Assembly: GCF_014268595.2 (NCBI RefSeq)
Contig: NZ_CP077091.1
Location: forward strand, 642,501 to 706,500
Source: Pseudomonas hamedanensis
GTDB lineage: Bacteria; Pseudomonadota; Gammaproteobacteria; Pseudomonadales; Pseudomonadaceae
Direction: 5' to 3'
DNA length: 64,000 nt
This document shows, piece by piece, positions 25,212 through 49,407 of this stretch (position 1 is its first letter; every line of letters starts with the position of its first letter). A program made the translations under genes and the position numbers. The notes beneath the pieces were generated by a model that was given only the letters and a program-made list of their open reading frames with translations, made no database searches and was not told where the DNA came from.

Positions 25212-25320
25212 GGTGCGGGCACACACCGCGTTACGTACTCCCGATCATGCGATAGCCGGATACCGCAGTCGCCGTGTCCTGAAATGGTCTGCTGGTCGCT
25301 CCATTGAAAAAGGAGTGATC

Positions 25321-28300
25321 ATGGACGCTATCCCACCCAACCCGCCATTGACGCCGCCTGCGTCGCCCGCTCAGCCCGCCAGCCCGGTAAAGCCGATTGC
25401 AACGAAAAGCCTGCACGGCGCATTCCTCGAAAAAGCCATTCCTGAATGGCTGACCCAAGCGTCGACCTCGCGGCGTCAGGTCCTGAAAGATACCCACACG
25501 GAACTGCCAGCCTGGTATCGCAGCGCATCGACCGCCCAGCGCCAGGCCTTGCACGACAGTACGCGGGCGAGCATGGTCGCGCAGAACCGGCTGGATAAAA
25601 CCATGGCCTCGTTTCAGGACATCGAAACATTTGCCCGGCCCTTGCTGCTCGAGGCGCTGAACGACCAGTTTCAACTGAAAGTCGACGTCGACAAAACCTT
25701 GCTGTGTCTAAAGCGCCCGCTGGAAGCGGGCATTCTTGCCATTGAGTTGTCTTCCTTCGAGGTCCTCAAGCTCTCGATGCTGGACGCGGCGCTGCATAAC
25801 TTTGAAGCCTACGAATGCGAGGCCGGGGCCTACCATACGACCTCCGGTTTCGTCGCCACCGGCACTGCGCCGCACGAATACGAGGCGGTGACGCTTGCGC
25901 TGACGGTCAGCCAGTTCCTGACGCTGTGTCGCAGTCTCGACATCGGCAAGCAGTACCAGACTTACCTGCAGAAATTCTTTCACCCGACCGACGCCGTGGC
26001 CGAGACGGCGTTGCGCGAACAGTTCATCGGCTGTCAGAAAGCCGCGATGCGTGCCGCTGCCGAGCTGGCCTTGCTGAAAAAAGACATTGGGCCTGCGCAC
26101 TACACCATGATCCTGTCGGTCATCAACGGCGAGTTGAACCCGCGGGTCGGCAACAAACCGGTCTGGTTCAGGGACTTGTCGGTGATGAATAAACGCATGA
26201 CCGGCTGCGTGGTGTTCGCCGTCAGCGACAAGTACCGCTACGCCGATGAATGGATCATTTATATCCCCCATGACCCCGAGCATCCCTTCAAGTGCTACCG
26301 CGGCTCGGAGGATCAGCAGGAGTTCAAACGGCTGCTCACCGCACGCACTGGCGAGCAGGCCAAGAGCGCCGAGCCGACCGCATATGAGCGTTTCCTCAGC
26401 CAGTTTCTGGCTTACGACCAGCGCCCCTATTTCTTCAGCCAATTCACCCGCAAGGCCGCCGACTCGCCGAGCGATCACTGGCGAACGCCCTGGCGGACCA
26501 TCATCGATCTGGTGAGCCCCGGCGCGGTCTTTACCCGGATCAGGGAATTACCACCGCCGCCAGCGGCGAAACTGGAACCGGAGCCTGACCCTTACATTGC
26601 GCCGAACGCTTTTCTGCACCGGGGCCGAGGCCTCTGGGCGAGCAATCAGGACCTCTGGGAGTACCTCTACAAGGAGAGCCGCGCCAAGGTGCTGGCCGAC
26701 GCTCGCAGCCATGCGGTACCCAGCGCTGATGTCGATGTGAAGGCGCGCGAAGCCAAGCTTGCGCATTTGCTTCAGATCGGCCTGCTGGGGCTGAACATGG
26801 TGTCGATGTTCGTGCCCGTGCTGGGTGAAGTGATGATGGTGGTGATGGCCGGTCAGTTGTTGTACGAGACCCTTGAAGGCGCGATCGAGTGGGGCGAGGG
26901 CGACCGTCGGGCGGCCAAGGATCATCTGCTCGATGTCGCCGAGAATCTGGCACAGATTGCGCTGATGGCGGGCGTCGGTCTCGCGGTGCGCAAGTTCAGC
27001 GCCGCCCGGCCTGAACCGGTGCTTGAAAAGCTCGAGCCGGTGACGCTGCCCAATGGCCAGACGCGCTTGTGGCGGCCCGACTTGAGCGCTTATGAATCCT
27101 CGGTTTCATTGGCCAACAGCGCCGGTCCAAACCAGATGGGACAGCATCTGATCGATGGCAAAACCTATATTCGCCAGGGCAGCAAAGTCTACGAACAAGT
27201 GTTCGATGAGTCGCTGGGCAAATGGCGAATCAAGCACCCGAGCGATTCCGGCGCCTGGCAGCCGGTACTCGACAGCAACGGCCGCGGCGCCTGGCGGCAT
27301 AACCTGGAGCGCCCGCTGCAATGGGATCGGTTGACGTTGTTGCGGCGCGTGGGCCACGCCACGGAGGCGTTTTCTGACAGCGAGCTGATCCGGCTTGGCG
27401 AGGTCAGCGGCGTCAGTGACGACGCCTTGCGCAAAATGCACGTCGATCACGCGCCGCCACCGCCAGAACTGTCTGAGGCCATGCGGCTGTTCAAGGCCGA
27501 TAGGGAGACGGCGAGCGTTATCGAACAATTGCGCGGGACGACGCCCGTTGACGCGCTGTCGTTGTATGCGTTGCCGCTGGTCACCGAAATGCCGCGCTGG
27601 CCGGCCAAACGGGCGCTAGAGGTGTTTGACGGGCCGCAGTTGTCTGGCAAGTCCATCCGCTATGGCGCCGAGCGCCGCGTGCGCGGCGTGGGCGTGAAGT
27701 CGCCGATCCAGGTATCGCGCGCTGACATCCTCCACGGCGAGCTGCCGGCGCGCATTCTGGCTGGACTCGACGAACCAGAAATCACCCGCCTGCTCGGTGC
27801 AGAAGGCGCGCGCGTACGCGCCGCCCGAGCCGACGAGTTCGGCAAGCAGATTGCCGATTTCGCCCAGGTCCGCCAGCCGGCGATTTTTGCCAGCCTCTAC
27901 AAGGGCACCGAAGTCATGGCTCCTGAGGTCAAGCGTTTACAGAGCGCCTGTCCAGGACTCAGCGAATCGGCGGCAGATGAGGTGCTGGCGCAGGCCCATC
28001 CTGATGATCTGGCACAGTTCAGTTCAACCCGGCGCGTCCCGCTGCGCATGCTCGAGAAGGCGCGCTGGTATACCGACCAAGGCCGACAAGTGCGGGCTTA
28101 CGCCGGTCTGCGCAGCGAAAATATCGCCTCGGCGGACAGCCGCCGTCTGGCGTTGCAAACGCTGCAAAACCTGCCGGGCTGGCCGAATAACCTGCGCCTG
28201 GAAGTTCGCGAGGGCAGTCGCCACGGGGCGCTGCTCGATAGCGTCGGCAGCGAGACGGCGGTGGAGAAAAAATACCTGATCAAACAAGGCCCGCAATTTC

Positions 28301-31300
28301 AGGCGTTCGATGAGCGTGGCGAAACGCTCAACAGCCTGCCGACAGCGGGCGACAACTTTTATGCCTCAGTCATGCACGCGTTGCCCGATGGCGCACGGCG
28401 CAGCCTGGGCGTACCAGAGGTGAATCAATCGGCTGAGCTGCAACGCCGGATCATCGCTTACGCCGGTCAGCATCGTGGCGACGCGCAGGCGCTTCTGAAA
28501 CCGCAGGCGAAATGGCTCAAGCCGCCTGCCCGGGTTAATAAATCCTTGATCGGCTATCCCGCCAGCGGGCGAGGCCCGAGCCTGGACCCGATCCTCAACG
28601 CACGGGTGCGCGATCTCTATCCGGACATGAGCGAACAACAAGCCAACGGCTTCATTCTGGAGCAGTGGCAGGCGGGCAAGGACAGCAGAGCAATTGCCGA
28701 ACTGTTGCAGGTCCGCCGGCAGGAATGGGTGCAACTCAACGCCGCACTGGACACCTGGGCGGGGCCGGCTGTAGCACCTTGGGAACGATCCGGCACTGAT
28801 CACAAGCTGCGCACCGCACAAGCCCTCAAGGATTGCTGGCGCAATGCGCCGATCGCCACGCAGACGGCCGGCGCCGATCGGCTTTCCATTATCAGTTACG
28901 ACCCTTTGCCAGCGCTGGACGCGGATTTTTCACACGTACGTGACTTGACTGTTGGCGGGGGCGGGATGACCGATGCCAATGCCGATGCTTTTCTGAGCCG
29001 TTTCCCCAATCTGGAAAGACTGGTGCTGGGTGAGCGCGGGAGTCTGCTTGTTTCCCATATGATGTACGAACAGGCACTGACGAACCTGCCGTCGACAGTG
29101 ACCCGCATGACCGCGCTGAGAAGCCTCAAGTTCAGGACCTCTGCCCCCGCGATAGCCAATGAATTTTCCCGTCGGCTAGGCGCGCTGACTGCGCTTGAAA
29201 CGCTTCATTTCAATTACGCGGGAACCGGTCCGCTTACTTCGGCGAACCTCGATCTTGCGCCATTGACGCACCTGCGAAAACTCACGATCGACGCGCCAGG
29301 CCTGGCGCAGTGGCCGGACTCGTTGCAAGCGCTTCCCGAGCTACAACGACTTGACCTTTCGCAGACCTCGATTGCCTCGATTCCGGATGCGCTCTATATC
29401 GGTCGAGAAAGACTCTGGGCGGGCCTGTCGCTGGACTGGTCGAGGTTTTCCTATGAGACGTTCCGGCCGGCCTATGAGTATGTCACCCGATATATGGGCT
29501 CATGGGGGCACCTGGTGGATGTCGACTTGATGGTTCGCCAATATTGCGCCGGCGAGCTTGAGTTTCTGACGGGCGAGTCCGGACATATCAACCCGTTGCC
29601 GCAAAGCATCATGAGTGCATGGGACACACCCGCGACCCGGCTCAAGGCGGTTATCGCCTTGCGTGCGGAACATACCGGGATTTTCCGCCAGTTTTATCAA
29701 CCCACAACCTCCGGCGGCTTGCGTACGGCGTTACCGATACCGCGCTGGCAGGCGCAACCTAACGCCAGGGTGGTGCGTGCACTGGAGCGAAGCTGGCGCG
29801 CGGCCGTACGCAAACGCTACAGCCTGGAACCGGCTGCCCAGCCCGCCAATTCGATGGAGTGGAATGCTGCCATCAACCGTGATGATCCCACCGTATTCGA
29901 ACTTCGCGACACCGCGTGGGTGCAGGGCGAGCCGTCCATCAGTGAGCTGCCACGATTGCCGGCGGGCACCTTTTCCAAGGTACAGACCGTGCGCCTGGAC
30001 CGCCTGACAGTACCCGTCGAGCAGATTCGCGATTTCCTTCAGGCATTCAGCGGCACGCAGCACTTGGAGATCACCGCCAGCGGGCTGACGGAAGTTCCGA
30101 TCCGTGCGGGTGACCTGGCGCAACTGACGCGCCTGGATCTGTCGTTCAACCGGATCATCGCCACGCCTGCGGTTCAGGCCCAGTTCAATGGCTTGAAGGG
30201 CCTTGAATATCTCAATGCGCGCCTGAATCAACTGACGGCCCTCGACGTCACGGCGATGCCCCGCCTCAAGGCTCTGAATCTAAGCTCCAACGGCCTCATG
30301 GCCTGGCCGGCGGGCGCCGAAGGCCTGGCGCAATTGCAGTCGCTTGACCTGCGTTACAACAGCATCGCGGCGCTGCCGGAATCGGTGCTCGCCGACGATG
30401 AGCTGCTGCTCAAGACCAGCCTGAGCGGCAACGTCTTCAACCCTGATGGCGAGGCGGCTCTGACGGCGGCACGGCAGCGTATCGAAACCACCAAAGGTTT
30501 GCCCGAGGGGGCCTTGAAACGCTTTGAATTGGAATCCGTATCGCTGCAGATGCCTGCCAACGACCCGCCATCGGACACTGCGCTGTCTCTCCTCAGGCAT
30601 TTATTACCATTGCCTCGCCAGACTGGTGCGGCGCTCGGAGCCGAGAGTTTCGTCGATCGACTGCTGGATCTGCATCCGGTAATTGCCAGGGATCAGGCAC
30701 TGCAATGGCTGGCGCAGCTACGCAACGAGGGGCTGACGGATGTGCAGATCGACGCCCGCTTAACGCAATGGGCACAGTCCGCTGAGTCACTGACGCGGCG
30801 GTTGAACGGCTGGATTTTTACCCGGATTCCGGTGACGGGCGCGACCGTCGTGTCGGCGCAGAGTCGTCAGCTCGCCGCGCTGAAAATTCGCGAGTGCTGG
30901 CAGGAAGGGCTGATCGGCGACAGCCAAGAGGCGGGGCGCACGCTGGATCTCACGGGGCTGTACACCGGGGATTTGCCGTCGTTGTCGAGCGCTTTTGCCC
31001 GCGTGCGCACTTTGAATCTCACCGGCTGCGGATTCTCCGTAGAGAGTTTCAACGCGTTCTGCAGTGATTTTCCTGAGGTGACCCGCCTGGTTCTCAACGG
31101 TAACGTCCTGCGCGTGCTGCCGGACGCCATCCATAACCTGGCCGGGCTCGAGCGCCTGGAGCTGAGCGGCAACAGTTTTGCGGACGCGCGAAGCGTTTAC
31201 GCCAGTCCAGGTGCCGAGCGCCTGCGCTGGCTGGATCTGAGCCACAATCAATTGGATGAGTTCGAAGCAGGCGGGTTGCGCAGGCTCGAAACCTTGAAGC

Positions 31301-32622
31301 TTGACCACAATGGTCTGAATGACTGGCCAGACGGCGTACTCGAGCTTCAGCATCTGCGCGCCCTGGACCTGACGGGCAACGACATCCGACAGTTCCCGGA
31401 CCGCTTGTTGGGCGGCAGCCATGAAGGGCTGGTTGCAGGCACGGACTTGTCGGAAAACCCGCTGACGCTCAACAGCCTGGAGCAGCTCAGGGATTACAGC
31501 GCGGCGAACGCAGATCGTGACGTAATGGGCTACTCGAGAACGCAGCTGGACCGTGAAATAGAGCGATCGCAAGAAACGGACAGCACCTCCGATTCCGATT
31601 CTGACTCGGACTTCGACAGCGATAGCGATGGCGACCAAGCGGGCGGCGCCAGGCGCGCTGACCCGCATGCCGGCGTCGAGGCGGGCGAGATCATCGAAAA
31701 CCCGCAGCAAGAGGTTGGCACTGCGGCGATGGACATCTGGCTCACCCACGCCCCTGACGATGTGCGAATGGTGCGGCAAACGCTGTGGCGTCAACTGGCC
31801 CGGGAGGCCAACCATGAAGCATTTTTTCATTTGCTCTCGAGATTGCCGGATACGCTCGAGTTCAAGCGGGCGGGCGCCGATCTGACTCAACGGGTGTGGC
31901 AGGTCATGCAGGCCGCTGCGGAAAATACCGAGTTGCGCGAGCTGTTGTTTATCGACGCCCAGACCCATCACACCTGCAGCGATGGACGAATCCTCTTGTT
32001 CAGTGAGTTGGAAACACGGGCTTACGAGTACACCGCGCTGCGCGATATTCCGCGCAATCGCCCGGAACAGCGAGGCCGGGCCCTGGTCGATCTGACGCGA
32101 CGTCTGTTTCGCCTGGACAGGGTCGACAAGCTGGCGGAAGCCGCCGCGAAAAACAAAGACCGCGCGGAAGTTCGCCTGCAATACCGAATCGCATTGGCTC
32201 GCGGCTGGCCGGACGGCCTGGAATTGCCAGCGCAACCGGAGCATATGCTGTATGGCACACCGATTCACGGACCGAGACTGGACACGGCCCGCGCCGCTGT
32301 TCTGGCAGACGAGGCGTCGGGTCTGTTTCTGGAGGACCTGATCTCCCGTGACTACTGGATTCGCTATCTGGAGGAGCGCTACGGCGAAACGTTCGATGAG
32401 CTTGAACGCGATGCCACCCGGCGTCAGGGAGAAATTGAAGATGCGCATCTGGACTGGAACGACAACGAGGAGGCGAATAGCCGTTACCTGGAAGCGCTGA
32501 CGCGGTTGCAGATCGAACGAGCAGAAGCGCGTACGCAGGCGCTCATGACGTTGTCCCGCGCAGAGTTGCAAGCACCGGCAACCCCGGCGTCACCGCAACC
32601 CGGCCCGTCATGGCGCCCGTGA
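25321..32622 (+). CDS. Giant LRR protein with DUF6543-like N-terminus and NEL E3 ubiquitin ligase domain (copy 2)
   Basis: 2433 residues, collinear with copy 1 along its length and ending in the same PQPGPSWRP tail. N-terminal DUF6543-like region, hydrophobic hairpin at about 483-520, and leucine-rich blocks at about 1202-1360, 1550-1693 and 1892-2033. Unlike copy 1 it has an acidic Ser-Asp linker (about 2087-2105, DSDSDSDFDSDSD) before the NEL domain. The catalytic Cys-x-Asp is at C2219 (HHTCSDGR). ATG 25321 is chosen for the AAAAGGAG Shine-Dalgarno; an earlier in-frame codon at 25213 lies in the intergenic hairpin region. Tandem duplication with divergence of the LRR blocks suggests two effectors with different targets (inference). 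Confidence 0.85.
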   Translation: MDAIPPNPPLTPPASPAQPASPVKPIATKSLHGAFLEKAIPEWLTQASTSRRQVLKDTHTELPAWYRSASTAQRQALHDSTRASMVAQNRLDKTMASFQDIETFARPLLLEALNDQFQLKVDVDKTLLCLKRPLEAGILAIELSSFEVLKLSMLDAALHNFEAYECEAGAYHTTSGFVATGTAPHEYEAVTLALTVSQFLTLCRSLDIGKQYQTYLQKFFHPTDAVAETALREQFIGCQKAAMRAAAELALLKKDIGPAHYTMILSVINGELNPRVGNKPVWFRDLSVMNKRMTGCVVFAVSDKYRYADEWIIYIPHDPEHPFKCYRGSEDQQEFKRLLTARTGEQAKSAEPTAYERFLSQFLAYDQRPYFFSQFTRKAADSPSDHWRTPWRTIIDLVSPGAVFTRIRELPPPPAAKLEPEPDPYIAPNAFLHRGRGLWASNQDLWEYLYKESRAKVLADARSHAVPSADVDVKAREAKLAHLLQIGLLGLNMVSMFVPVLGEVMMVVMAGQLLYETLEGAIEWGEGDRRAAKDHLLDVAENLAQIALMAGVGLAVRKFSAARPEPVLEKLEPVTLPNGQTRLWRPDLSAYESSVSLANSAGPNQMGQHLIDGKTYIRQGSKVYEQVFDESLGKWRIKHPSDSGAWQPVLDSNGRGAWRHNLERPLQWDRLTLLRRVGHATEAFSDSELIRLGEVSGVSDDALRKMHVDHAPPPPELSEAMRLFKADRETASVIEQLRGTTPVDALSLYALPLVTEMPRWPAKRALEVFDGPQLSGKSIRYGAERRVRGVGVKSPIQVSRADILHGELPARILAGLDEPEITRLLGAEGARVRAARADEFGKQIADFAQVRQPAIFASLYKGTEVMAPEVKRLQSACPGLSESAADEVLAQAHPDDLAQFSSTRRVPLRMLEKARWYTDQGRQVRAYAGLRSENIASADSRRLALQTLQNLPGWPNNLRLEVREGSRHGALLDSVGSETAVEKKYLIKQGPQFQAFDERGETLNSLPTAGDNFYASVMHALPDGARRSLGVPEVNQSAELQRRIIAYAGQHRGDAQALLKPQAKWLKPPARVNKSLIGYPASGRGPSLDPILNARVRDLYPDMSEQQANGFILEQWQAGKDSRAIAELLQVRRQEWVQLNAALDTWAGPAVAPWERSGTDHKLRTAQALKDCWRNAPIATQTAGADRLSIISYDPLPALDADFSHVRDLTVGGGGMTDANADAFLSRFPNLERLVLGERGSLLVSHMMYEQALTNLPSTVTRMTALRSLKFRTSAPAIANEFSRRLGALTALETLHFNYAGTGPLTSANLDLAPLTHLRKLTIDAPGLAQWPDSLQALPELQRLDLSQTSIASIPDALYIGRERLWAGLSLDWSRFSYETFRPAYEYVTRYMGSWGHLVDVDLMVRQYCAGELEFLTGESGHINPLPQSIMSAWDTPATRLKAVIALRAEHTGIFRQFYQPTTSGGLRTALPIPRWQAQPNARVVRALERSWRAAVRKRYSLEPAAQPANSMEWNAAINRDDPTVFELRDTAWVQGEPSISELPRLPAGTFSKVQTVRLDRLTVPVEQIRDFLQAFSGTQHLEITASGLTEVPIRAGDLAQLTRLDLSFNRIIATPAVQAQFNGLKGLEYLNARLNQLTALDVTAMPRLKALNLSSNGLMAWPAGAEGLAQLQSLDLRYNSIAALPESVLADDELLLKTSLSGNVFNPDGEAALTAARQRIETTKGLPEGALKRFELESVSLQMPANDPPSDTALSLLRHLLPLPRQTGAALGAESFVDRLLDLHPVIARDQALQWLAQLRNEGLTDVQIDARLTQWAQSAESLTRRLNGWIFTRIPVTGATVVSAQSRQLAALKIRECWQEGLIGDSQEAGRTLDLTGLYTGDLPSLSSAFARVRTLNLTGCGFSVESFNAFCSDFPEVTRLVLNGNVLRVLPDAIHNLAGLERLELSGNSFADARSVYASPGAERLRWLDLSHNQLDEFEAGGLRRLETLKLDHNGLNDWPDGVLELQHLRALDLTGNDIRQFPDRLLGGSHEGLVAGTDLSENPLTLNSLEQLRDYSAANADRDVMGYSRTQLDREIERSQETDSTSDSDSDSDFDSDSDGDQAGGARRADPHAGVEAGEIIENPQQEVGTAAMDIWLTHAPDDVRMVRQTLWRQLAREANHEAFFHLLSRLPDTLEFKRAGADLTQRVWQVMQAAAENTELRELLFIDAQTHHTCSDGRILLFSELETRAYEYTALRDIPRNRPEQRGRALVDLTRRLFRLDRVDKLAEAAAKNKDRAEVRLQYRIALARGWPDGLELPAQPEHMLYGTPIHGPRLDTARAAVLADEASGLFLEDLISRDYWIRYLEERYGETFDELERDATRRQGEIEDAHLDWNDNEEANSRYLEALTRLQIERAEARTQALMTLSRAELQAPATPASPQPGPSWRP

Positions 32623-32673: not shown

Positions 32674-36384
<3,711 letters not shown>

Positions 36385-42006: not shown

Positions 42007-42139
42007 GGCGCTTCCCTCTGAAGTGTCAGCGGGTGAACAGAGCGCATGCAGACTCCCCGCGAGTCAGGCCCGCAGAGGTTCGAACAGCGCCCGCCCACCG
42101 CGGGTTTGTCTGGTGCAGTGACGCCGAGGCGCACTGTGT

Positions 42140-42333
42140 GTTGCGGGCCGGTCTCCGGGCTCACGAGGGGCTGGCATTGAAGCCGACCTGCAAGCATCAC
42201 CTTCCCATGCCGGGGCACAGTGGATCTGACGCTTCGCTCGCTTACCGTTGCGGGGGCAGCACCGGACTGACATGGCTTGAGAGTAAAGCACATGATTCAC
42301 CGGTTTCCCGTTTCACCCTGTGAAGGGCACCCG
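42140..42333 (-). ncRNA. Cobalamin riboswitch upstream of cbtB
   Basis: On the minus strand the 5' part reads GGTGCCCTTCACAGGGTGAA then GGGAAACCGGTGAATC. The 3' B12-box-like part reads GAGCCCGGAGACCGGCCC. Order and spacing fit the AdoCbl riboswitch. It should repress the cbtB-cbtA-cobE-cobM unit when B12 is plentiful. Confidence 0.9.
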
Positions 42334-42382
42334 TAACAAGTTGTGTAGGAGAGCATGGGCGGGGATCGCCGTCAATCGACGA

Positions 42383-42709
42383 CTAGCGCAGGGCGAGCAG
42401 CACGTACACCGCCAAAGCAATCAGAAACGCATAGTAAGACTTCAGTCGCGTCAGGCTCAGCAGCCAGGCCAGCGCCACCGGCACAATCCACGGCATGGCC
42501 GCCGCCTGTTGTGTCGCCAGCGGATACAGCGCCCCGGCCAGCAGGCTGACCAGCATCGCCACCGAGGTGTATTTGCCAAGCCGGTCGATGAAGGTGCGGG
42601 CACCGCCGGACAGCCGTTCGACATTGACCGCCAGCGGCAACAAGCGGCACACCGCCGACACCAGCGCGCAGATCGCAACGTACAGCCAGAAGGTACTAGG
42701 GTCGGTCAT
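42383..42709 (-). CDS. azlD: AzlD-type small subunit of an amino acid exporter
   Basis: 108 residues, four membrane helices (FWLYVAICALVSAVCRLLPL, VAMLVSLLAGALYPLA, AAAMPWIVPVALAWLL, YYAFLIALAVYVLLAL), matching AzlD. AzlC-AzlD pairs export branched-chain amino acids and analogues. It overlaps the upstream azlC by 14 bp and is last in the six-gene operon. Here it probably exports the operon's amino acid-like product (inference). Confidence 0.88.
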   Translation of the reverse strand: MTDPSTFWLYVAICALVSAVCRLLPLAVNVERLSGGARTFIDRLGKYTSVAMLVSLLAGALYPLATQQAAAMPWIVPVALAWLLSLTRLKSYYAFLIALAVYVLLALR

Positions 42710-43394
42710 AGGCGTAACTCGTCAGGACCGTGACCGCCAACACCAACAGCAGGCTGATTTCGCCCAGCCAGAGCAAACTCGCGGCAGCGGCCAGACCGGC
42801 AATCCATTGTCCATGGAAGCTGTGACGGTCGCGCGCCATTTTGCCCAGCGATGCGCTGAGAAAGATCGCAATCACTACGCTGGCATGGTCCATCAAGGCG
42901 TCGTCGGCCAGGCGGGCGAAGCAGTAACCGACCACGGTGCCGAGCAGGGCGGCGGCGTACAACAACAAGCACACGGTGTTGGCGTACGGGCGGCTGATCG
43001 GCTGCTGTTCCTTGCGGATCGACATCAGCGTGAAGGCCGCGTTAGCCATCACCGCCAAGGCCGGGACGAACGTTTTGATCGGGCCGTCGAGGCTCGATTT
43101 CAGGCTCAGCGTGAACACCAGAAAACGCAGGTTGATGCTCAGTGCCGACACCAGCACGCCGAAAGCATTGAGCAGATGCGCCGGGGTTTCCAGCAGGGTC
43201 AGTTGCAACGGCGAGGCCATCACCGTGCCGCTGAACACCACCATGGCCGGCAAGTCCAGGCCATGGCGGCGCCCGAGCATGCCGATCAGGCTGAAGGTCA
43301 GCAGCAGCGAAAAGACGAGCGGCAGCGCATCGCGAATGCCGGTCGCAATCTCGTTGTGCGCCGCCGGTTTTGCCAGTGCGGACTCAGCCGGCAT
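42696..43394 (-). CDS. azlC: AzlC family amino acid export permease
   Basis: 232 residues with several hydrophobic helices and the family start pattern GIRDALPLVFSLLLTFSLIGMLGRRHGL; also SGTVMASPLQLTLLE and ALSINLRFLVFTLSL. Large subunit of the AzlCD exporter. The start at 43394 overlaps the upstream isomerase gene by 11 bp. Neighbours are biosynthetic, so export of the made compound (self-protection) is a better guess than amino acid homeostasis. Confidence 0.85.
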   Translation of the reverse strand: MPAESALAKPAAHNEIATGIRDALPLVFSLLLTFSLIGMLGRRHGLDLPAMVVFSGTVMASPLQLTLLETPAHLLNAFGVLVSALSINLRFLVFTLSLKSSLDGPIKTFVPALAVMANAAFTLMSIRKEQQPISRPYANTVCLLLYAAALLGTVVGYCFARLADDALMDHASVVIAIFLSASLGKMARDRHSFHGQWIAGLAAAASLLWLGEISLLLVLAVTVLTSYAYDRP

Positions 43395-44301
43395 GGGTGC
43401 TGCGGCGCGCGTCGGCGAGCAGCTTCTCCACGCCGTTTTTATAGGCCAGGGCTTTTTCCAGGTAGTACTCGGTGGAAAAGCGCGGAATGAATTCTTCGAC
43501 CACCGCCACCCCGCGATAGCCATTGACTGCAAAGCGATTGAGCACATCGCTCAGGCGCAGGTTGCCTTCGCCGATCGGCAGGTGCTGGTGGTGGGTGTCG
43601 TTGAGGTCGGCGATGTGCAAATGGCGGGTCACCGGCGCGAGAGCGGCGATGGCGGCGAACAGCTCGTCGCCATACGGCAGCAGTGAGCACAGGTGCGTCA
43701 CATCGATGGTCACGAAGCAGCCGGTTTGCTGGTGGAAACGCAGGTGTTCCTCGACCGTGAAAACCGGGAATTTCGGCCGCTGACCGCCCATGTTTTCCAG
43801 GCACAGGGCGATGCCCGTCGTATTGCAACGTGCCTTGACTTGATTGATGGCGGCGATCAGGTTGTCGAGCAGCTCGCGGTTTTCCAGTTGATCCTTGTAG
43901 CCGGGGTGGAAGGTGACGCTGGTGGCGCCGGCCTGACAGGAAAAGTCCACGGCAGCAGTCAGGCAGTCCACGGCTTGTCCACGTTCGGCCAGATCAGGGG
44001 AACACAGGTTGTACTCGCGGCCCCACCAGCCGGCATGCACCGTCAACGTGATGCCGTTTTGCTCGGTGAAGCTGCGGATCTGTCGGGCGAGGTTCGCACG
44101 TTGTTCGATGCTGAGCGACCAGAACACCTTTTCGGCGTCTTCGCCGATTTCGAATTCCACGGCCTTGAAGTAGCGGGCCAGATCGGTGATCGAACCGAAA
44201 ATGTCCGCCGGATTGTCGTAGACGTTGGTGGAAAAAGAGATCAGCGGGAAATCAGCGCTGATCGGCCCATCGATGCGGTACAGCGTCTCTTGTGTGGTCA
44301 T
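43384..44301 (-). CDS. Sugar phosphate isomerase/epimerase-type TIM barrel enzyme
   Basis: 305 residues of the AP endonuclease 2/xylose isomerase-like TIM barrel. Probable metal ligands are in TSVTFHPGYKD, LCLENMGGQ, VTIDVTHLCSLL, HLHIADLND and VAVVEEF. Relatives are isomerases, epimerases or dehydratases needing a divalent metal. It overlaps the ATP-grasp gene by 4 bp. In this operon it may isomerise a small polar intermediate. The exact reaction cannot be read from sequence. Confidence 0.85.
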   Translation of the reverse strand: MTTQETLYRIDGPISADFPLISFSTNVYDNPADIFGSITDLARYFKAVEFEIGEDAEKVFWSLSIEQRANLARQIRSFTEQNGITLTVHAGWWGREYNLCSPDLAERGQAVDCLTAAVDFSCQAGATSVTFHPGYKDQLENRELLDNLIAAINQVKARCNTTGIALCLENMGGQRPKFPVFTVEEHLRFHQQTGCFVTIDVTHLCSLLPYGDELFAAIAALAPVTRHLHIADLNDTHHQHLPIGEGNLRLSDVLNRFAVNGYRGVAVVEEFIPRFSTEYYLEKALAYKNGVEKLLADARRSTHAG

Positions 44302-46718
44302 TGCGCCTGTCCTTGCGTAGTGAAAGGTGGGTGGGAAATCGCGGCGTTGAACAGCACCGGGTCGTCCGCCTCGCGACAGGCCAGCAACACGTAGCCGTGA
44401 CGGTCGGCGGAGCGGCGGATCGGGCGGCCGAACTTGTCGTGGTTGAGGCTCGCGCGCAGGGCGAAGGGTTGCTCCAGCAGACGTGCCTGTAGCGGTTGCG
44501 GGTCAGTGGCGGGGTCCGCTTCGATGTAGCGGATCGCCATTTTCACGTAGTGCTTTTCCGGCGCCGGCAGCGCGATGCCGGTCATGGCGGCGAGGGTGCT
44601 GGCGGCCAGGTGCACGCCGGTGGTTTTCCAGACCATTTCCCAGATCTGGTCGCCGCCGAAGCGGGTCTGGGTTTCGATGAACTGCAGGCGTGAACCGTCG
44701 AGCTTGACCTCGGTATGCGCCGGTCCCCAGCGGTTGCCCATGCGTTCGAGCAGCCACAGCACGGCTTCTTCGATTTGTACACGCGTGGCGTTGTCGAGCC
44801 CGGCCGGAAAGTCATGCCCGGTTTCGACGTAACCCGGCGCGCCGCTGGTGTGCTTGCGCGTGATACCAAGGATTTGATGGCGGCCGTCCAGGCTCAGCGA
44901 CTCGACGCTGTATTCATCGCCACCGGCGAACGCCTCGATCAGATTGTCGCCTTGAAGCTGTAGATGCTCGGCGTCCTCCGGTTGGTTGATGGCATAAACG
45001 CCCTGGCTGCCCGAGCCGTTGACGGGTTTGACGATGGCCGGACCATGACGCAGAACGAAGGCGCGAACCTCCTCGACACGGGTCACCGCCGCCGCCGGCA
45101 GCTCGTAGCGGCTGCCCTGAAGCAACTGGCGAAAGCGCAGCTTGTCGCGGCTGACTTCGACGCTGCGCAGGCTGTTGTGCGTGATGCCCAGCCGTTCGCC
45201 GAGCTGTGAGGCGGGCAACAGGCCCAGCTCCGAGAACGACACCACGGCAGCGAATGGCCGCTGCCGGTGCAAGCGCTCAAGCGTTTCGCTATAGGCCGAG
45301 AGGTCGGCGATGTCTGGTGTCAGCACCAGCGTTGCATGCTCGCGCTGGTACTCAGAGACCTCGCCGGGTGGTTGAACGAGGGTAAAACGCAGTTGCCGCG
45401 CAGTGTCCCAATCCAGCCCCGAATCGCGCCCGCCGATGAGCAAGACGTGCTTGCCACTCGCCGCCGTCGAGGTTTCGCCGTAGACATCGAGGTCAGCGAC
45501 GGCCAGCAAGGATTCACGCAGGCTCGCGGTGTCGGGCTGCTTGAACTCGATGTACAGATAGTTCTGAAAACCGTGGCTGACCGGGCCGATGCTGTCGCCC
45601 GGATCGACGTAGGCGTACCAGCGCTGGAAGCCCGGCAGGCGGGTGATGCGGTCGGCGTTGTGCAGGCCGTCATAGAAGCGGTCTGCACGGGCGAAGGGGG
45701 TGGCGATGCCGAACGGCGCGGGCGTCTGGCGGGGCTGGGGCAGCGTTTGCGCGCTGAGTGCCCGGTGATAACAGACGTCCAGCGACAACCCCCACGCCTG
45801 GCGAATGACATGAATCCGGCTGCCGCCCGGGCGCGCGCCAACCTCAAGAACTCGCGGCCCGTTGGCGGTGAGAATGAATTCGACGTGGGCAAACGTACCC
45901 GCCAGTTCCAGCGCTTTCACCGCGTCATGGGCCAGGCGCTGGCAGCGCGCTTGCAACGCGGTATCGGCGGCCAGCGTCGACGGGGTGTAGCGGGCGAAGT
46001 GGTGAAAATCAGCGCGACCGATATCGACACCGGCGATCACGTCGACAATCGGAAAACTGTGAATCGTGCCGTCCGCCGCGATAGCGCAATCAATGGAGTG
46101 ATTGGAGCCCTGAAGGAATTCCTCCAGCAGCAACTGATCGGTTTCACGCTGTTTGCCCGCCACGTAACGTTGCAGCGCGGGCCATTCATGGCGGGCGTAG
46201 TCGAGCAGTTCCTGTGGATTGTGGAGGCAGCGCACAAACAGGCTGCTGTAGAGGTTCGCCGGTTTCAGAATGAACGGGTAGGGCAGTTCCGTCGGGCGCG
46301 CGAGCAGCTCGTCGATGCGGACCTCGCGCGACAGCACGTGCAGATCGGGATTGCCCGACTGCTGGAAGCGTTGGCGTTGCAGCACCTTGTCCAAGGTGTT
46401 TTCCACGTTCCGATGCAAATGCGCCAGGGCCGGCAGCGCCGCGCACAGTCGGGCGGTGATGGCGACATAGCCTTCGCGGAAATTCAGCACGCTGGTGAAC
46501 CGGTGCTCGTCGAGCAGGCGCTGCGTCAGGGCGATCAGTTCCGCGCTCAGCCCTTTGGAAAAATCGTACCGGGCCACGGGCGAAATCCGGCTCGCGTCGG
46601 CGATCTTGCTGGTCTTGCGGCTGTCGGCGATCAACAGCGGCGTAATGCCTTCGGCGAGCAAGCCTTCGTATTCGCCGTCGCGGATGTTGCCGATGATCAG
46701 GCAGGCTGGCGCGCTCAT
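44298..46718 (-). CDS. Tandem ATP-grasp ligase
   Basis: 806 residues made of two ATP-grasp units. Unit 1 (about 1-400) has the ATP Lys region FILKPANLYSSLF, LLLEEFLQGSNHSID and the Mg-binding FILTANGPRVLEVGARPGG. Unit 2 (about 420-806) has AIVKPVNGSGSQGVYA, LIEAFAGGDEYSVES and TEVKLDGSRLQFIETQTRFGGD. Both keep the catalytic acidic residues, so two carboxylate-amine ligations, or one plus a regulatory site, are possible, as in peptide or amino acid ligases. Start at ATG 46718 with AGGAGA upstream, overlapping the PLP gene's stop by 4 bp (ATGA). Product unknown. Confidence 0.85.
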   Translation of the reverse strand: MSAPACLIIGNIRDGEYEGLLAEGITPLLIADSRKTSKIADASRISPVARYDFSKGLSAELIALTQRLLDEHRFTSVLNFREGYVAITARLCAALPALAHLHRNVENTLDKVLQRQRFQQSGNPDLHVLSREVRIDELLARPTELPYPFILKPANLYSSLFVRCLHNPQELLDYARHEWPALQRYVAGKQRETDQLLLEEFLQGSNHSIDCAIAADGTIHSFPIVDVIAGVDIGRADFHHFARYTPSTLAADTALQARCQRLAHDAVKALELAGTFAHVEFILTANGPRVLEVGARPGGSRIHVIRQAWGLSLDVCYHRALSAQTLPQPRQTPAPFGIATPFARADRFYDGLHNADRITRLPGFQRWYAYVDPGDSIGPVSHGFQNYLYIEFKQPDTASLRESLLAVADLDVYGETSTAASGKHVLLIGGRDSGLDWDTARQLRFTLVQPPGEVSEYQREHATLVLTPDIADLSAYSETLERLHRQRPFAAVVSFSELGLLPASQLGERLGITHNSLRSVEVSRDKLRFRQLLQGSRYELPAAAVTRVEEVRAFVLRHGPAIVKPVNGSGSQGVYAINQPEDAEHLQLQGDNLIEAFAGGDEYSVESLSLDGRHQILGITRKHTSGAPGYVETGHDFPAGLDNATRVQIEEAVLWLLERMGNRWGPAHTEVKLDGSRLQFIETQTRFGGDQIWEMVWKTTGVHLAASTLAAMTGIALPAPEKHYVKMAIRYIEADPATDPQPLQARLLEQPFALRASLNHDKFGRPIRRSADRHGYVLLACREADDPVLFNAAISHPPFTTQGQAQ

Positions 46719-47995
46719 TGGCAAGTCTCCTGGTCGAAGCTGTAGTGGATCCGGTTCAGGCGTTGACAGATGTGGTTCAGGCGGACGCGGTCCACGCCGT
46801 TCGCGCCACCGCTGAGGACGTTGCGGATGATGTGCGCCAAGGCATCCAGGTCCTCGCCGGTGATACCGAGTCGGGTAATTTCCTGCAGGCCGAAGCGCAG
46901 GCAGTCGCGGCCGTTGACCTGTTTGTTGTTGACCCGAATGCCCAGTTCGTTGAGCCGTTGCGCCGCTTGCCGGGCCTGTTCACCTTCGAGCAACAGCAGG
47001 TGCGTGTCGGTGGGGTGCAGCGTCCAGCCGGGAATGCCGACCAGTGCGTCGTGCAACTGGCGGGTGTTGGCGCACATGCGCTGGGCGTAGGCCTGGCCGT
47101 ACTGGCGGGTTTCCACAAGGGTGACGAATAATTGCAGCAGGCCGGGCAGGTTGGGCGAGGACACCAGCCCGCCGCTGAGGGTCTGCTCGATCCGCCGGGC
47201 GAGGTCGGCACGCCGCGACACGATCAGCGCCCGGTGCGGACCGGCGAGGGATTTGTGCGTGTTGCCCTGAAGAATGTCGGCCCCGTCGTCCAGCGGATTG
47301 GGGAAGGCCTGACCGGCGATCAGCCCCAGAGTGTGCGAGGCGTCGTAGATAATCAGCGTGCGCTGCAGGCCGCAGCGATCGAGCAAGGCGCGCAACGGCT
47401 GAAGGGCGATCGCCCGGGTGGTCAGGCCGTGGTCGAGCAGTACAGCAGCGGGGGGCGCCGCGAGGGTTTGAAGCTGTTGCTGGAAATCCTCGAGATCGAT
47501 TTGCCCGCCAGCGGTCAGTCTGCAAAACACGCTGTGCCTGCCGATTTTTTGCACCAGTGGGCCAGTAGCAAAATGTCCGCCGCTGGCGGGTGCCAGCGAC
47601 ACAATGGCGTCGCCCGGTTCGCTCAGGGCGGCCAGCACGCTCAGTGTGCAGTGCACGCCGGACAACACGCGATACTCGACGAAAGGGGCGTTGAACATCG
47701 CCTGCACGGCCTGGGTCGCCAATGCCTTCAATGTTTCGACTTCGGGAAAGTGCTCGATCTGCATGCCGTTGAATTCAGCGGCATAGCGTTGGCCTTCGAT
47801 GGCTTGAGCGTTGAACAAGTAACGCTCGTAATGCCGGTTCTGGCCGAGTGTGCGCGCAGTGTCGGACAAAATATTTTCATTGGCCGTCAGCGACAAGGTA
47901 CAAGTTCGTCGCGCTCCGGCCTGTTGGAACTGTTCAATAATAAAATCATGTGCGCCGGGTGTGCCGACTGAAAGTGCATGGCTTGAATGATTCAT
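46715..47995 (-). CDS. SHMT-like PLP-dependent aldolase/transferase
   Basis: 426 residues of the fold-type I serine hydroxymethyltransferase group: LSLTANENILSD, RYLFNAQAIEGQRYAAEFNG, VEYRVLSGVHC, IIYDASHTLGLIAGQAF (PLP Asp and His) and GNTHKSLAGPHRALIV with the Schiff-base Lys at 248. Compared with true GlyA, the central region is shortened and changed, and it sits in a biosynthetic operon. It is therefore likely a specialised hydroxymethyl- or aldol-type enzyme on a beta-hydroxy amino acid. The start overlaps the dioxygenase stop by one base (TAATG). Confidence 0.85.
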   Translation of the reverse strand: MNHSSHALSVGTPGAHDFIIEQFQQAGARRTCTLSLTANENILSDTARTLGQNRHYERYLFNAQAIEGQRYAAEFNGMQIEHFPEVETLKALATQAVQAMFNAPFVEYRVLSGVHCTLSVLAALSEPGDAIVSLAPASGGHFATGPLVQKIGRHSVFCRLTAGGQIDLEDFQQQLQTLAAPPAAVLLDHGLTTRAIALQPLRALLDRCGLQRTLIIYDASHTLGLIAGQAFPNPLDDGADILQGNTHKSLAGPHRALIVSRRADLARRIEQTLSGGLVSSPNLPGLLQLFVTLVETRQYGQAYAQRMCANTRQLHDALVGIPGWTLHPTDTHLLLLEGEQARQAAQRLNELGIRVNNKQVNGRDCLRFGLQEITRLGITGEDLDALAHIIRNVLSGGANGVDRVRLNHICQRLNRIHYSFDQETCQ

Positions 47996-48747
47996 TAATA
48001 GTCCGCCAGGTCGAAGTCGATAATCAACATGTCGCGGCTGCCGCGATCCGAATGCATGCCTGATGTTTGCAGCGGTGAAACTTCGTGCAGAAGTATTCGG
48101 TCATTCAAAACAACGGTTTCCATGTAGTCCGTCAAAGTTGCACTGAATACACAGTCGCCTTCTTCCGCAAATATCCGGCTTTCTCCCCCCGTGACTTGCT
48201 GGCGTTGGATCAGGTGTTGAAAGACAAAATCGTGCCCGTCGCGATGCCGGCCTTCGGGGGTGGCGTGGCCGGCATTGCGTTCATCGCAGAGGATGCGGAA
48301 TTGATGGCAGGTCACCAGCCAGTCACGCGGGCCGACGGTCAACTCCATCAGTGCCAGGTCGGCGGCGAGCAAAGTTCGCAGGACCGCAGAGTCGATGAAT
48401 GCCGCTTCGCTGCGCGTATAAGTGCGCTGTACCCCGCCCAGCAGCGGGTTGTGGGCCTGGGCCTGAAAAAAATGGCAGTCGGGCAGCGGCGTCCATTGGT
48501 GTGCCCGATGACGATATTCGAACTTGCAGATGCGCCGCTCGCGGACACCGTTTTGCGCGTGCAAATATCCGTCGCGAGGCAAACGCTCCCAAGTCGCATT
48601 GAATGCCCGGCAATCTCCGCGCCCCAGCCTCGCAACCTGCGCCGCCGGATACTGATCACTGTGCACGTAATGGCGATGACGCAGTTGTTCGGCAAGTTCC
48701 TTCAATACAGCATCGCCTGAATGCCGTAACGCATGGCCGGCACTCAT
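47995..48747 (-). CDS. 2-oxoglutarate/Fe(II) dioxygenase (PF10014, isoleucine-dioxygenase type)
   Basis: 250 residues. The iron triad is H168-x-D170 (EGRHRDGHDF) with H221 (ILLHEVSPL), and R238 (GSRDMLIIDF) is placed to bind 2-oxoglutarate. This pattern is that of the free L-amino acid hydroxylases related to Bacillus IDO. It probably hydroxylates a free aliphatic amino acid as the first step of the operon. ATG 48747 has no Shine-Dalgarno and overlaps the stop of a 22-codon ORF, so translation is probably coupled. The Bacillus ido cluster likewise carries an amino acid exporter gene. Confidence 0.85.
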   Translation of the reverse strand: MSAGHALRHSGDAVLKELAEQLRHRHYVHSDQYPAAQVARLGRGDCRAFNATWERLPRDGYLHAQNGVRERRICKFEYRHRAHQWTPLPDCHFFQAQAHNPLLGGVQRTYTRSEAAFIDSAVLRTLLAADLALMELTVGPRDWLVTCHQFRILCDERNAGHATPEGRHRDGHDFVFQHLIQRQQVTGGESRIFAEEGDCVFSATLTDYMETVVLNDRILLHEVSPLQTSGMHSDRGSRDMLIIDFDLADY

Positions 48748-48812
48748 GCTGTTGCTACACAAGTTTGGGGGACAGGAATAAACAGAATGGAACACTGATA
48801 GTAATCAGGCAT
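48744..48812 (-). CDS. 22-residue upstream ORF coupled to the dioxygenase gene
   Basis: ATG 48812 is preceded by AAAGGAA at 7 nt spacing. The ORF starts MPDYYQCSILFIPV, has two Cys, and ends in TGA overlapping the dioxygenase ATG (ATGA). Since the dioxygenase start lacks its own Shine-Dalgarno, this ORF is likely translated to deliver ribosomes. Whether the peptide itself matters (leader, precursor or nothing) is open. Confidence 0.5.
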   Translation of the reverse strand: MPDYYQCSILFIPVPQTCVATA

Positions 48813-49106
48813 GCAAGAATTCCTTTCTTGTGGGGGCGCAGTCCATGTGAGGCCCATGGTTCATATCCTGTATTAATTTATCAATTGTGTTTTTGTAAAG
48901 AAATGTAATTAAGGTGTTCAGGCGCTCTATTTCAAGTGTGTCCGCCGAATTGCACTTAGTTGGTGGCCGATTGATATGTCAGAGATAACTTACAGATTTT
49001 GTGTTAGTTGAGATCTGTTCTCGATACATATATGAAAGATTAATGTCCATATAGCGATAATATTGCAAAGATTGACCCGCCTGCCGCGCATGCGTAGCCT
49101 TGCGCT
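48813..49106. other. AT-rich divergent intergenic region
   Basis: About 290 bp between the biosynthetic operon and the cobW riboswitch, clearly richer in A+T than the flanking genes (for example GTAATTAAGG, ACATATATGAAAGATTAATG, GATAATATTG). No gene is visible. It should hold the promoters of both units. Confidence 0.5.
48869..48900 (-). promoter_or_regulatory. Possible sigma-70 promoter of the biosynthetic operon
   Basis: On the minus strand TTTACA is followed after 16 bp by ATTAAT in an AT-rich stretch, about 60 bp before the 22-codon ORF. The match is moderate. Confidence 0.35.
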
Positions 49107-49295
49107 TTCGAGGTTCTTCGGCGCGTGCCGAAGCTAAGAAGGGAACGCGGTCAAAGCCGCGGCTGCCCCCGCAACTGTGAACGGTGCTGTTCGCTGCCAC
49201 GCCACTGCCGGCTCCTTGCAAGGAGCCAGCGGGAAGGCGCAGCGAATACCAGGCCCAAGGCCTGAACACCGTCAGCCAGGAGACCTGCCTCGTCA
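49107..49295 (+). ncRNA. Cobalamin riboswitch upstream of cobW
   Basis: Reads CGAGGTTCTTCGG at the 5' end, then AAGAAGGGAACGCGGT, GCTGCCCCCGCAACTGTGA and near the 3' end the B12 box GTCAGCCAGGAGACCTGCC. All core elements of the AdoCbl riboswitch are present in order. It should switch off cobW-cobN-chlI-chlD when B12 is sufficient. Confidence 0.95.
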
Positions 49296-49407
49296 CAGAT
49301 TTCTGACTTTCAACCGGGCGGGGTGATCCGGTGGCGAATTCTCCAGGCGCGCGCGTGCGTTGCCGGTTCTCGTCCCGTATGCCCGCCGCTTGCCAAAGGG
49401 CATATCG

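What the first reader, a model, noticed from the sequence alone, without database searches (positions are those of the whole stretch)
42383..48812. Uncharacterised dioxygenase/PLP/tandem ATP-grasp/AzlCD biosynthetic operon
Six genes, each overlapping the next, encode a PF10014 2OG-Fe(II) dioxygenase, an SHMT-like PLP enzyme, a double ATP-grasp ligase, a metal TIM-barrel isomerase and an AzlC-AzlD exporter. Seen in sequence: the catalytic residues of each are intact and the gene order is compact. Known: PF10014 members hydroxylate free L-amino acids, ATP-grasp enzymes ligate amino acids, AzlCD exports branched-chain amino acids. Inference: the operon makes and exports a modified amino acid or small peptide, perhaps an antimetabolite. 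I do not recognise it as a described pathway.
Basis: partly seen in the sequence, partly recalled or inferred. Interest (0 to 1): 0.82.

Follow-up and report, generated by a model that had tools for sequence, protein, structure and literature searches.

The report
Uncharacterised hydroxy-amino-acid peptide operon
A compact Pseudomonas gene set that most likely builds a small peptide from an unusual hydroxylated amino acid and pumps it out; its enzymes belong to known families, but the combination turned up in no paper that was searched, and a distant relative has the same core with another ligase arrangement and another exporter.

Summary
The six overlapping minus-strand genes are real, and their order is kept in 9 of 9 relatives fetched. 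In Pseudomonas the operon lies between two divergent cobalamin riboswitches; relatives without it have those riboswitches 41-959 bp apart (11 of 14 loci). Corrections: the dioxygenase starts at 48747 behind a conserved 22-codon leader ORF (48744-48812); the 'SHMT' groups with threonine transaldolases and lacks the SHMT folate region; the 'isomerase' has nine metal-ligand-like positions resembling MJ1311 and endonuclease IV. A distant cluster (L070, proteins about 30-35% identical) keeps the TIM barrel, transaldolase and dioxygenase beside an MFS exporter, with the first half of the double ATP-grasp protein as its own gene, followed by a different ligase. So the core is D-B-A plus the ligase N-half; second ligase and exporter look exchangeable. 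Best reading: a di/tripeptide or masked amino acid made from an aldol-built beta-hydroxy amino acid and exported. Substrates, product and activity are unknown. It is rare (6 of 398 Pseudomonas genomes, own included). Seven aimed literature searches, seen as listings, showed no description.

The parts
48744..48812 (-). 22-codon leader ORF with a Shine-Dalgarno-like AAGAAAGGA; its stop overlaps the dioxygenase start (ATGA)
   Evidence: present in 7 of 7 Pseudomonas loci compared, 22 codons in 6 and 21 in L036; substitutions over 6 loci show no codon-position bias (119/90/111), so a coupling leader is likelier than a functional peptide
47995..48747 (-). A: PF10014 2-oxoglutarate/Fe(II) dioxygenase, 250 aa; H168-x-D170, H221, R238
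   Evidence: start set by the leader ORF and by relatives
46715..47995 (-). B: PLP enzyme of the threonine-transaldolase / fluorothreonine-transaldolase group, 426 aa; H141, D218, K248, R367
   Evidence: TIGR04506 214 bits (cut-off 650) against SHMT subfamily 152 bits; tree and missing folate region
44298..46718 (-). C: tandem ATP-grasp ligase, 806 aa from ATG 46718 (the longest ORF starts at TTG 46724)
   Evidence: two ATP-grasp matches; halves 25% identical over 283 columns, E 1e-4; fold search: carbamoyl-phosphate synthetase large subunit, then L-amino acid ligases; N-half is a stand-alone gene in L070
43384..44301 (-). D: PF01261 TIM barrel with nine metal-ligand-like positions H89 H132 E169 D200 H203 H229 H238 H240 E269
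   Evidence: invariant in all 19 rows of the alignment; in L070 the last is Asp; alignments to known structures; AF2 model pLDDT 90.1
42696..43391 (-). E: AzlC, large subunit of the amino-acid exporter (231 aa from ATG 43391; the longest ORF starts at 43547)
   Evidence: PF03591; start supported by the relative in L038
42383..42709 (-). F: AzlD, small subunit of the exporter
   Evidence: PF05437 at 20.3 bits, below cut-off; kept next to AzlC in 9 of 9 relatives
48862..48912 (-). AT-rich block upstream of the leader ORF, well conserved among Pseudomonas carriers; presumed promoter and 5' leader (approximate coordinates)
   Evidence: alignment of 7 loci; the consensus promoter scan found no minus-strand site there
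42129..42349 (-). Cobalamin riboswitch of cbtBA, 33 nt behind azlD, with no terminator-like site between
   Evidence: Rfam RF00174 95.3 bits; spacing 22-34 nt in 7 of 7 loci; scan; CbtB and CbtA by Pfam
49094..49306 (+). Cobalamin riboswitch of cobW-cobN, divergent from the operon
   Evidence: Rfam RF00174 99.8 bits; CobW and CobN by Pfam

Best explanation
The operon makes and exports a small, ribosome- and NRPS-independent peptide, or an amide-masked amino acid, built on a beta-hydroxy-alpha-amino acid. B moves a glycine unit, most likely from L-threonine, onto an aldehyde to give a beta-hydroxy amino acid. D, a multi-metal TIM barrel, prepares the aldehyde or works on a neighbouring intermediate. 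A hydroxylates the free amino acid, the precursor or the product. The two ATP-grasp halves of C each form one amide bond, the N-half belonging to the core and the C-half adding a second residue. AzlC-AzlD exports the product. Shown here: gene order, family membership, kept catalytic positions, the N-half of C as a separate gene elsewhere, exchange of the exporter. Inferred: all substrates, the reaction order, the product, metal binding and any biological activity.
For: Six-gene order in 9 of 9 relatives and in one further Pseudomonas genome (L071). A rearranged cluster at about 30-35% identity (L070) keeps D, B and A in overlapping order (D-B-A) with an MFS transporter, a stand-alone homologue of the N-half of C (31% over 428 columns, 186 bits) and a second, different ATP-grasp ligase. 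B groups apart from SHMTs (fork 100/98), lacks the region that carries the folate motif in SHMTs, and scores best against fluorothreonine transaldolase. In passages of PMC7162832 that enzyme accepts L-Thr plus several aldehydes and carries a fused metal aldolase domain; a separate metal protein D beside B would be parallel. PF10014 members hydroxylate free Leu, Ile and Thr (PMC3684760, part 1 of 5 and passages). C's fold neighbours are the tandem CPS and the L-amino acid ligases.
Against: No substrate or product was tested. B is only about 30% identical to the S. cattleya transaldolase region and does not reach the family cut-off. In the N-half of C the usual Mg-binding Asn is Gly or Ala and its glycine-rich loop is altered, so that half could have another role, although Gly at that place is common in related ligases (12 of 24 motif matches). 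The AF2 model of C is only moderate (pTM 0.57) and its superposition on CPS is poor as a whole (TM 0.33 or less, rmsd about 20 A). One listed C relative, P0020 (465 aa), covers only 42% of C. AzlCD is known (recalled) for single amino acids, which may favour a free amino acid over a peptide. Only one distant cluster supports the core idea.
Confidence: 0.6

Rival explanations
1. The end product is a free modified amino acid exported by AzlCD; C only masks it temporarily or adds one protecting residue, as proposed for Hil operons and known for bacilysin.
For: AzlCD-type exporters carry single branched-chain amino acids (recalled); the Hil operon paper proposes a HilABC amino acid ligated by HilD and describes bacilysin as a masked anticapsin (PMC3684760 passages).
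Against: Both ligase modules are kept in the 15 C proteins that I aligned of the 21 listed plus the window's own, and L070 has two separate ligase genes, which suggests two amide bonds; P0020 is a shorter exception.
Confidence: 0.25
2. A degradative or detoxifying operon: A hydroxylates an amino acid, B cleaves it by retro-aldol reaction, D processes the fragment.
For: SHMT-like and threonine-aldolase enzymes are reversible (recalled); D belongs to a superfamily with many sugar-metabolising enzymes.
Against: ATP-spending ligases and an exporter fit synthesis; the six genes include no importer and no dehydrogenase; L070 lies beside PKS and NRPS-type domains.
Confidence: 0.08
3. A cobamide-linked function: D resembles the cobamide phosphodiesterase CbiR and the operon sits in the B12 locus between two cobalamin riboswitches.
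For: CbiR is D's best NCBIfam match (47.5 bits); both riboswitches flank the operon in 7 of 7 loci scanned.
Against: 47.5 is far below the cut-off of 105; no cobW, cobN, cbtA or cobM match and no riboswitch lies in L037-L039; the GTCAA/TTGAC elements beside the riboswitches stay outside the operon; the other five genes have no B12 family match.
Confidence: 0.04
4. The 22-codon leader ORF encodes a precursor that C, A and D modify (a RiPP-like system).
For: Leader start, Shine-Dalgarno, length and stop overlap are kept in 7 of 7 Pseudomonas loci; ATP-grasp and metal TIM-barrel enzymes occur in RiPP pathways (recalled).
Against: No third-position bias and poor peptide conservation after the first few residues; C resembles free amino acid ligases; no equivalent was evident just upstream of A in L037-L039, where I only read the printed sequence by eye.
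Confidence: 0.03

Closest known systems
Fluorothreonine transaldolase (FTase) and ObiH-type L-threonine transaldolases
   Same: B shares the H/D/K/R catalytic positions and the LTANEN-like motif and lacks the SHMT folate region; best NCBIfam hit is TIGR04506
   Different: B has no fused class II aldolase domain and is about 30% identical; no NRPS or fluorinase is in the operon; an unrelated metal-type protein D is encoded instead
Hil operons (Pantoea, Rahnella, Pseudomonas, Xenorhabdus) and the IDO operon of Bacillus thuringiensis
   Same: a PF10014 hydroxylase, in some with a PF13535 ligase and an exporter; a dipeptide antibiotic was proposed
   Different: no HilA, HilC, HilR or HilP family in the six genes; here a transaldolase-like enzyme, a metal-type TIM barrel, a tandem ligase and AzlCD; A scores 39.5 against the HilB cut-off of 350
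L-amino acid ligases BL00235 (3vot), BacD, RizA
   Same: ATP-grasp modules of C match them in sequence (C-half) and fold
   Different: two ligase modules in one chain, like the carbamoyl-phosphate synthetase large subunit
MJ1311 / endonuclease IV / CbiR within PF01261
   Same: D's His/Asp/Glu positions face those of MJ1311 and, for seven of nine, of endonuclease IV in the printed alignments
   Different: one Asp of both is His in D (H238); below CbiR and Nfo cut-offs; no cob genes beside it in L037-L039
AzlC-AzlD branched-chain amino acid exporters
   Same: AzlC family above cut-off with a small AzlD-like partner
   Different: diverged: 21.9 bits against the equivalog cut-off of 332 for azlC

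Membership tests
L-threonine transaldolase / FTase group (B) | PLP lysine and H, D, R positions as in ObiH (PMC10495429 passages) | tested here: met
   H141, D218, K248, R367 in B; the same letters stand in all 39 rows, SHMTs included, so this does not separate the two
L-threonine transaldolase / FTase group (B) | groups with transaldolases, apart from SHMT | tested here: met
   SHMT fork 100/98 of 4 rows, FTase fusions 100/99, B's group 100/100; ObiH is on a long branch (3.54) and the forks between the transaldolase-side groups are open
Fluorothreonine transaldolase (equivalog TIGR04506) | score above 650 bits and fused aldolase domain | tested here: not met
   214 bits; no PF00596 in B
L-threonine transaldolase (B) | transfers the glycyl unit of L-Thr to an aldehyde without folate | not testable with these tools
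   needs an enzyme assay
Serine hydroxymethyltransferase (B) | YAEG-PGKRYYGG region (its folate role is recalled) | tested here: not met
   present in 3 of 3 GlyA rows and, slightly changed, in MjSHMT; absent from B and its relatives in the alignment; a fourth GlyA locus (L062) was lost by the ORF picker
PF10014 dioxygenase (A) | HxD...H iron triad and Arg, Pfam score | tested here: met
   175 bits against 23.1; residues invariant in the 10 sequences aligned
HilB equivalog (A) | score above 350 bits | tested here: not met
   39.5 bits
ATP-grasp L-amino acid ligase (C) | ATP-grasp modules with L-amino acid ligase neighbours | tested here: met
ATP-grasp L-amino acid ligase (C) | ATP-dependent ligation of L-amino acids | not testable with these tools
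   needs an enzyme assay
CbiR cobamide phosphodiesterase (D) | NCBIfam cut-off 105 bits | tested here: not met
   47.5 bits
PF01261 multi-metal barrel, endonuclease IV type (D) | nine His/Asp/Glu ligand positions (endonuclease IV list recalled) | tested here: inconclusive
   nine positions invariant in 19 rows, the last Asp in L070; in the printed alignments all nine face His/Asp/Glu of MJ1311, but with 2x7v seven of nine do, H89 is out of register and E269 lies beyond the aligned part; metal binding not tested
Sugar isomerase/epimerase (D) | epimerase-type site without the extra His ligands | tested here: inconclusive
AzlC-AzlD exporter (E, F) | AzlC and AzlD above Pfam cut-offs | tested here: inconclusive
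   AzlC 52.5 against 32.1, met; AzlD 20.3 against 23.7, not met

The most novel reading that the evidence does not exclude
D, B, A and the N-half ligase form a previously undescribed core for a family of peptide natural products. A stand-alone fluorothreonine-transaldolase-like enzyme works with a new multi-metal TIM-barrel partner (in place of the fused aldolase domain) to supply and capture an unstable aldehyde; the resulting hydroxylated amino acid is then capped by exchangeable ligases and exporters, giving different members in Pseudomonas, Enterobacterales and a small-genome gammaproteobacterium.
Probability: 0.35. Interest if true: 0.75.

Novelty: new variant of a known kind. Interest (0 to 1): 0.55.

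Why it matters
Small amino-acid antimetabolites and ligase-made peptides tend to escape NRPS/PKS-based genome mining. This cassette gives a sequence signature (D, B and A genes side by side) for finding more, would add a stand-alone transaldolase with a possible metal partner to the few known routes to beta-hydroxy amino acids, and is small enough to test in a laboratory strain in one construct.

Tried and rejected
Cobalamin link: attractive from the location and from D's CbiR-like score, but rejected as the main reading (rival 3). Precursor-peptide reading of the leader ORF: weak (rival 4). Anti-phage system: no PADLOC match to any of the six proteins at E 0.001. PHROGs: no match for C and D at E 0.001. 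Plasmid carriage: no plasmid record encodes a relative of D at E 1e-10, and the only plasmid matches for the L070 transaldolase at E 1e-30 are the two S. cattleya records at 34.5%. Remnants of the operon in empty sites: tblastn on the 4 of 11 gaps longer than 100 bp gave only weak hits (best E 0.007). Fold comparison cannot separate epimerase from endonuclease IV for D. Papers naming 9DQP, 9DQ0, 8JMS, 8W8H or 'BsmA domain': none, so the substrates of these PF10014 structures could not be used. Passages of PMC13336071 and PMC8948231 on PF10014 were looked at and add nothing on substrates here. Xylophilus ampelinus has relatives of B (P0044) and D (P0157) listed with the same longest-contig length, but no C relative was listed for it and its locus was not fetched. 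L037 is titled Chryseobacterium, but its GC (49-54%) and an oligogalacturonate lyase next door look enterobacterial to me, so I do not count it as spread across phyla. I first thought an ORF of L037 (3801-4178) resembled HilA; Pfam gave it no family.

Rows dropped or doubled: the tree used 33 proteins chosen by hand from the 120 printed of 318 found, and lost one GlyA locus. The C alignment took 14 of the 21 proteins plus the window's own; left out were P0001, P0004, P0005, P0009, P0013, P0020 (465 aa, 42% covered) and P0021. Substitution counts of the leader ORF used 6 of 7 loci (L036 has one codon less). The S. cattleya row starts upstream of the probable gene start and was cut at 440 residues, so its identities are rough.
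Full report
What is there. The window lies in a genome of 6.05 Mb, Pseudomonas to judge by the titles of its close relatives. Between cbtBA and cobW-cobN (Pfam CbtB, CbtA, CobW, CobN) lie six genes on the minus strand: A (PF10014 dioxygenase), B (PLP enzyme), C (tandem ATP-grasp), D (PF01261 TIM barrel), E (AzlC) and F (AzlD, below its Pfam cut-off). All five junctions overlap, by 1 to 14 bp. The arrangement is kept in 7 of 7 Pseudomonas loci compared (22 codons in 6, 21 in 1), but substitutions fall about equally on the three codon positions (119/90/111 over 6 loci), so it looks like a translational-coupling leader rather than a functional peptide.

Conservation. The dioxygenase alone, used as query, brought in 9 loci. 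All 9 carry relatives of all six genes in the same order: six Pseudomonas, Prodigiosinella, Serratia rubidaea (B there reads in two frames) and a contig titled Chryseobacterium whose GC and neighbours look enterobacterial. One further Pseudomonas genome (L071) shows the same order. The operon is rare: D at E up to 1e-60 in 6 of 398 Pseudomonas genomes, own included; full-length C in 3 of 199, own included (87 of 199 have some weaker ATP-grasp match); B at E up to 1e-45 in 2 of 369 genomes of the class and 1 of 299 of the phylum, own included. The L070 form of B found only the window's own genome among 398 of the phylum, and only itself among 7 genomes of its family.

The site. In the window and in 6 of 6 Pseudomonas loci scanned, two Rfam cobalamin riboswitches flank the operon, pointing away from each other. 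Among 14 other Pseudomonas cobW loci, 11 show both riboswitches within the fetched 4 kb, 41-959 bp apart; in L047, L054 and L055 only one reached the threshold. A GTCAA element on the cbtB side and TTGAC on the cobW side, which I read as the -35 boxes of the two promoters, stand on both sides in 9 of the 11 gaps printed (L044 lacks the first, L048 the second) and on either side of the operon in 7 of 7 carriers. The simple consensus scan did not flag a promoter at the cbtB end, so the -35 reading is an inference. The operon therefore occupies the spacer between two B12-controlled units and left their outer parts intact. azlD stops 22-34 nt before the cbtB riboswitch in 7 of 7 loci with no terminator-like site between in the window, so read-through into the riboswitch is possible but unproven. 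L037-L039 have neither riboswitch nor matches to the four cob/cbt queries, which argues against a B12 function.

The PLP enzyme. B scores 214 bits against fluorothreonine transaldolase (cut-off 650) and 152 against an SHMT subfamily. In a tree of 39 rows the SHMTs (three of the genome's own GlyA copies and MjSHMT) form a separate group (100/98); FTase-type fusions (100/99) and B's own group (100/100) lie on the other side, with open forks between them. ObiH sits on a long branch and its exact place is unsure. The SHMT region YAEG-PGKRYYGG (folate role recalled) is replaced by an insert in B and is absent from ObiH. The H, D, K and R letters are those of ObiH but also of SHMTs. The genome has four good SHMTs (499-586 bits) besides B (79 bits). 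In passages of PMC7162832, FTase uses L-Thr, accepts several aldehydes and carries a zinc-binding aldolase domain fused to its PLP domain; relatives with or without that domain form a clade apart from classical transaldolases and SHMTs. In passages of PMC10495429, transaldolases are spread over several sequence clusters, some with no characterised member.

The ligase. C has two ATP-grasp modules, 25% identical over 283 columns. Its predicted model (pLDDT 80.6, pTM 0.57) matches the carbamoyl-phosphate synthetase large subunit best by E-value, though the overall superposition is poor (rmsd about 20 A), and then the L-amino acid ligases 3vot (TM 0.75 by target length), BacD and RizA. The C-half keeps a normal glycine-rich loop; the N-half has an altered one and Gly/Ala where Asn is usual (motif names recalled), but Gly there is frequent among related ligases (12 of 24 motif matches in L004-L030).

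The distant cluster. A class-wide search with B gave one more genome (G773). Its locus L070 (GC 39%) has D, B and A in overlapping order (D-B-A), then an MFS transporter (PF07690, 140 bits), then a stand-alone protein matching the N-half of C (31% over 428 columns), then a second ATP-grasp ligase about equally distant from both halves of C (47 and 45 bits), then a weak U32-like protein (22.2 bits, just under its cut-off), an asparagine-synthetase-like amidotransferase, an Asp/Asn-hydroxylase-family protein and another MFS protein, with PKS and NRPS-type domains on the other side. The order differs from the Pseudomonas operon and the exporter is of another family, yet D, B, A and the N-half ligase stay together. 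This is the strongest evidence that these four act in one pathway, that the halves of C can be separate ligases, and that exporter and second ligase are exchangeable. It rests on one genome.

Interpretation. The most economical mechanism is: B builds a beta-hydroxy-alpha-amino acid by aldol transfer, with D supplying or handling the aldehyde or a neighbouring intermediate; A hydroxylates; the ligase halves add one or two amino acids; AzlCD exports. PF10014 enzymes hydroxylate free Leu, Ile and Thr, and Hil operons, some of which pair such an enzyme with an ATP-grasp ligase and an exporter, were proposed to make a dipeptide antibiotic (PMC3684760, part 1 of 5 and passages). Everything about substrates, order of steps and activity is inference.

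Known or new. The families are known; the combination was not seen in ten full-text searches of one open-access library. Those aimed at it were; some searches concerned single families. I judged the hits by their listings (searches showed 25 of 116 and 20 of 459 papers) and opened passages of a few. Subscription papers, preprints and MIBiG were out of reach, so 'undescribed' is limited to that. I rate it a new variant of a known kind (ligase-made amino-acid or peptide operons), with a bolder case given separately.

Noticed in passing
window 17971-25161 and 25213-32622: Two giant tandem plus-strand ORFs (2396 and 2469 aa), each with ToxA_N, leucine-rich repeats and a NEL E3-ligase domain; they look like NEL-type effector or toxin proteins. 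Described only.
   Followed up: no
window 42350-42383: azlD ends 33 nt before the cbtB cobalamin riboswitch with no terminator-like site between: the operon may read through a riboswitch as an internal element.
   Followed up: partly
window 48744-48812: Conserved 22-codon leader ORF overlapping the first gene.
   Followed up: yes
L037 875-4178: Next to the six-gene cluster, on the other strand, lie an MFS transporter and an ATP-grasp ORF that seems split, perhaps a degraded ligase operon; the contig's Chryseobacterium title looks doubtful (GC 49-54%, oligogalacturonate lyase).
   Followed up: partly
L070 1724-17956: Genome of 2.1 Mb with an asparagine-synthetase-like protein, an Asp/Asn-hydroxylase-family protein and PKS and NRPS-type domains around the D-B-A core.
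   Followed up: partly
window genome G000: Four SHMT genes (499-586 bits) besides B; the number was not compared with other genomes.
   Followed up: no
window 32674-36384: B12-dependent methionine synthase MetH lies about 3.5 kb from the tetrapyrrole methylase gene at 39886.
   Followed up: no
P0020 (Pseudomonas sp. IAC-BECa141): A C relative of only 465 aa, 81% identical over 42% of the query: one carrier may have a shortened or differently split ligase.
   Followed up: no
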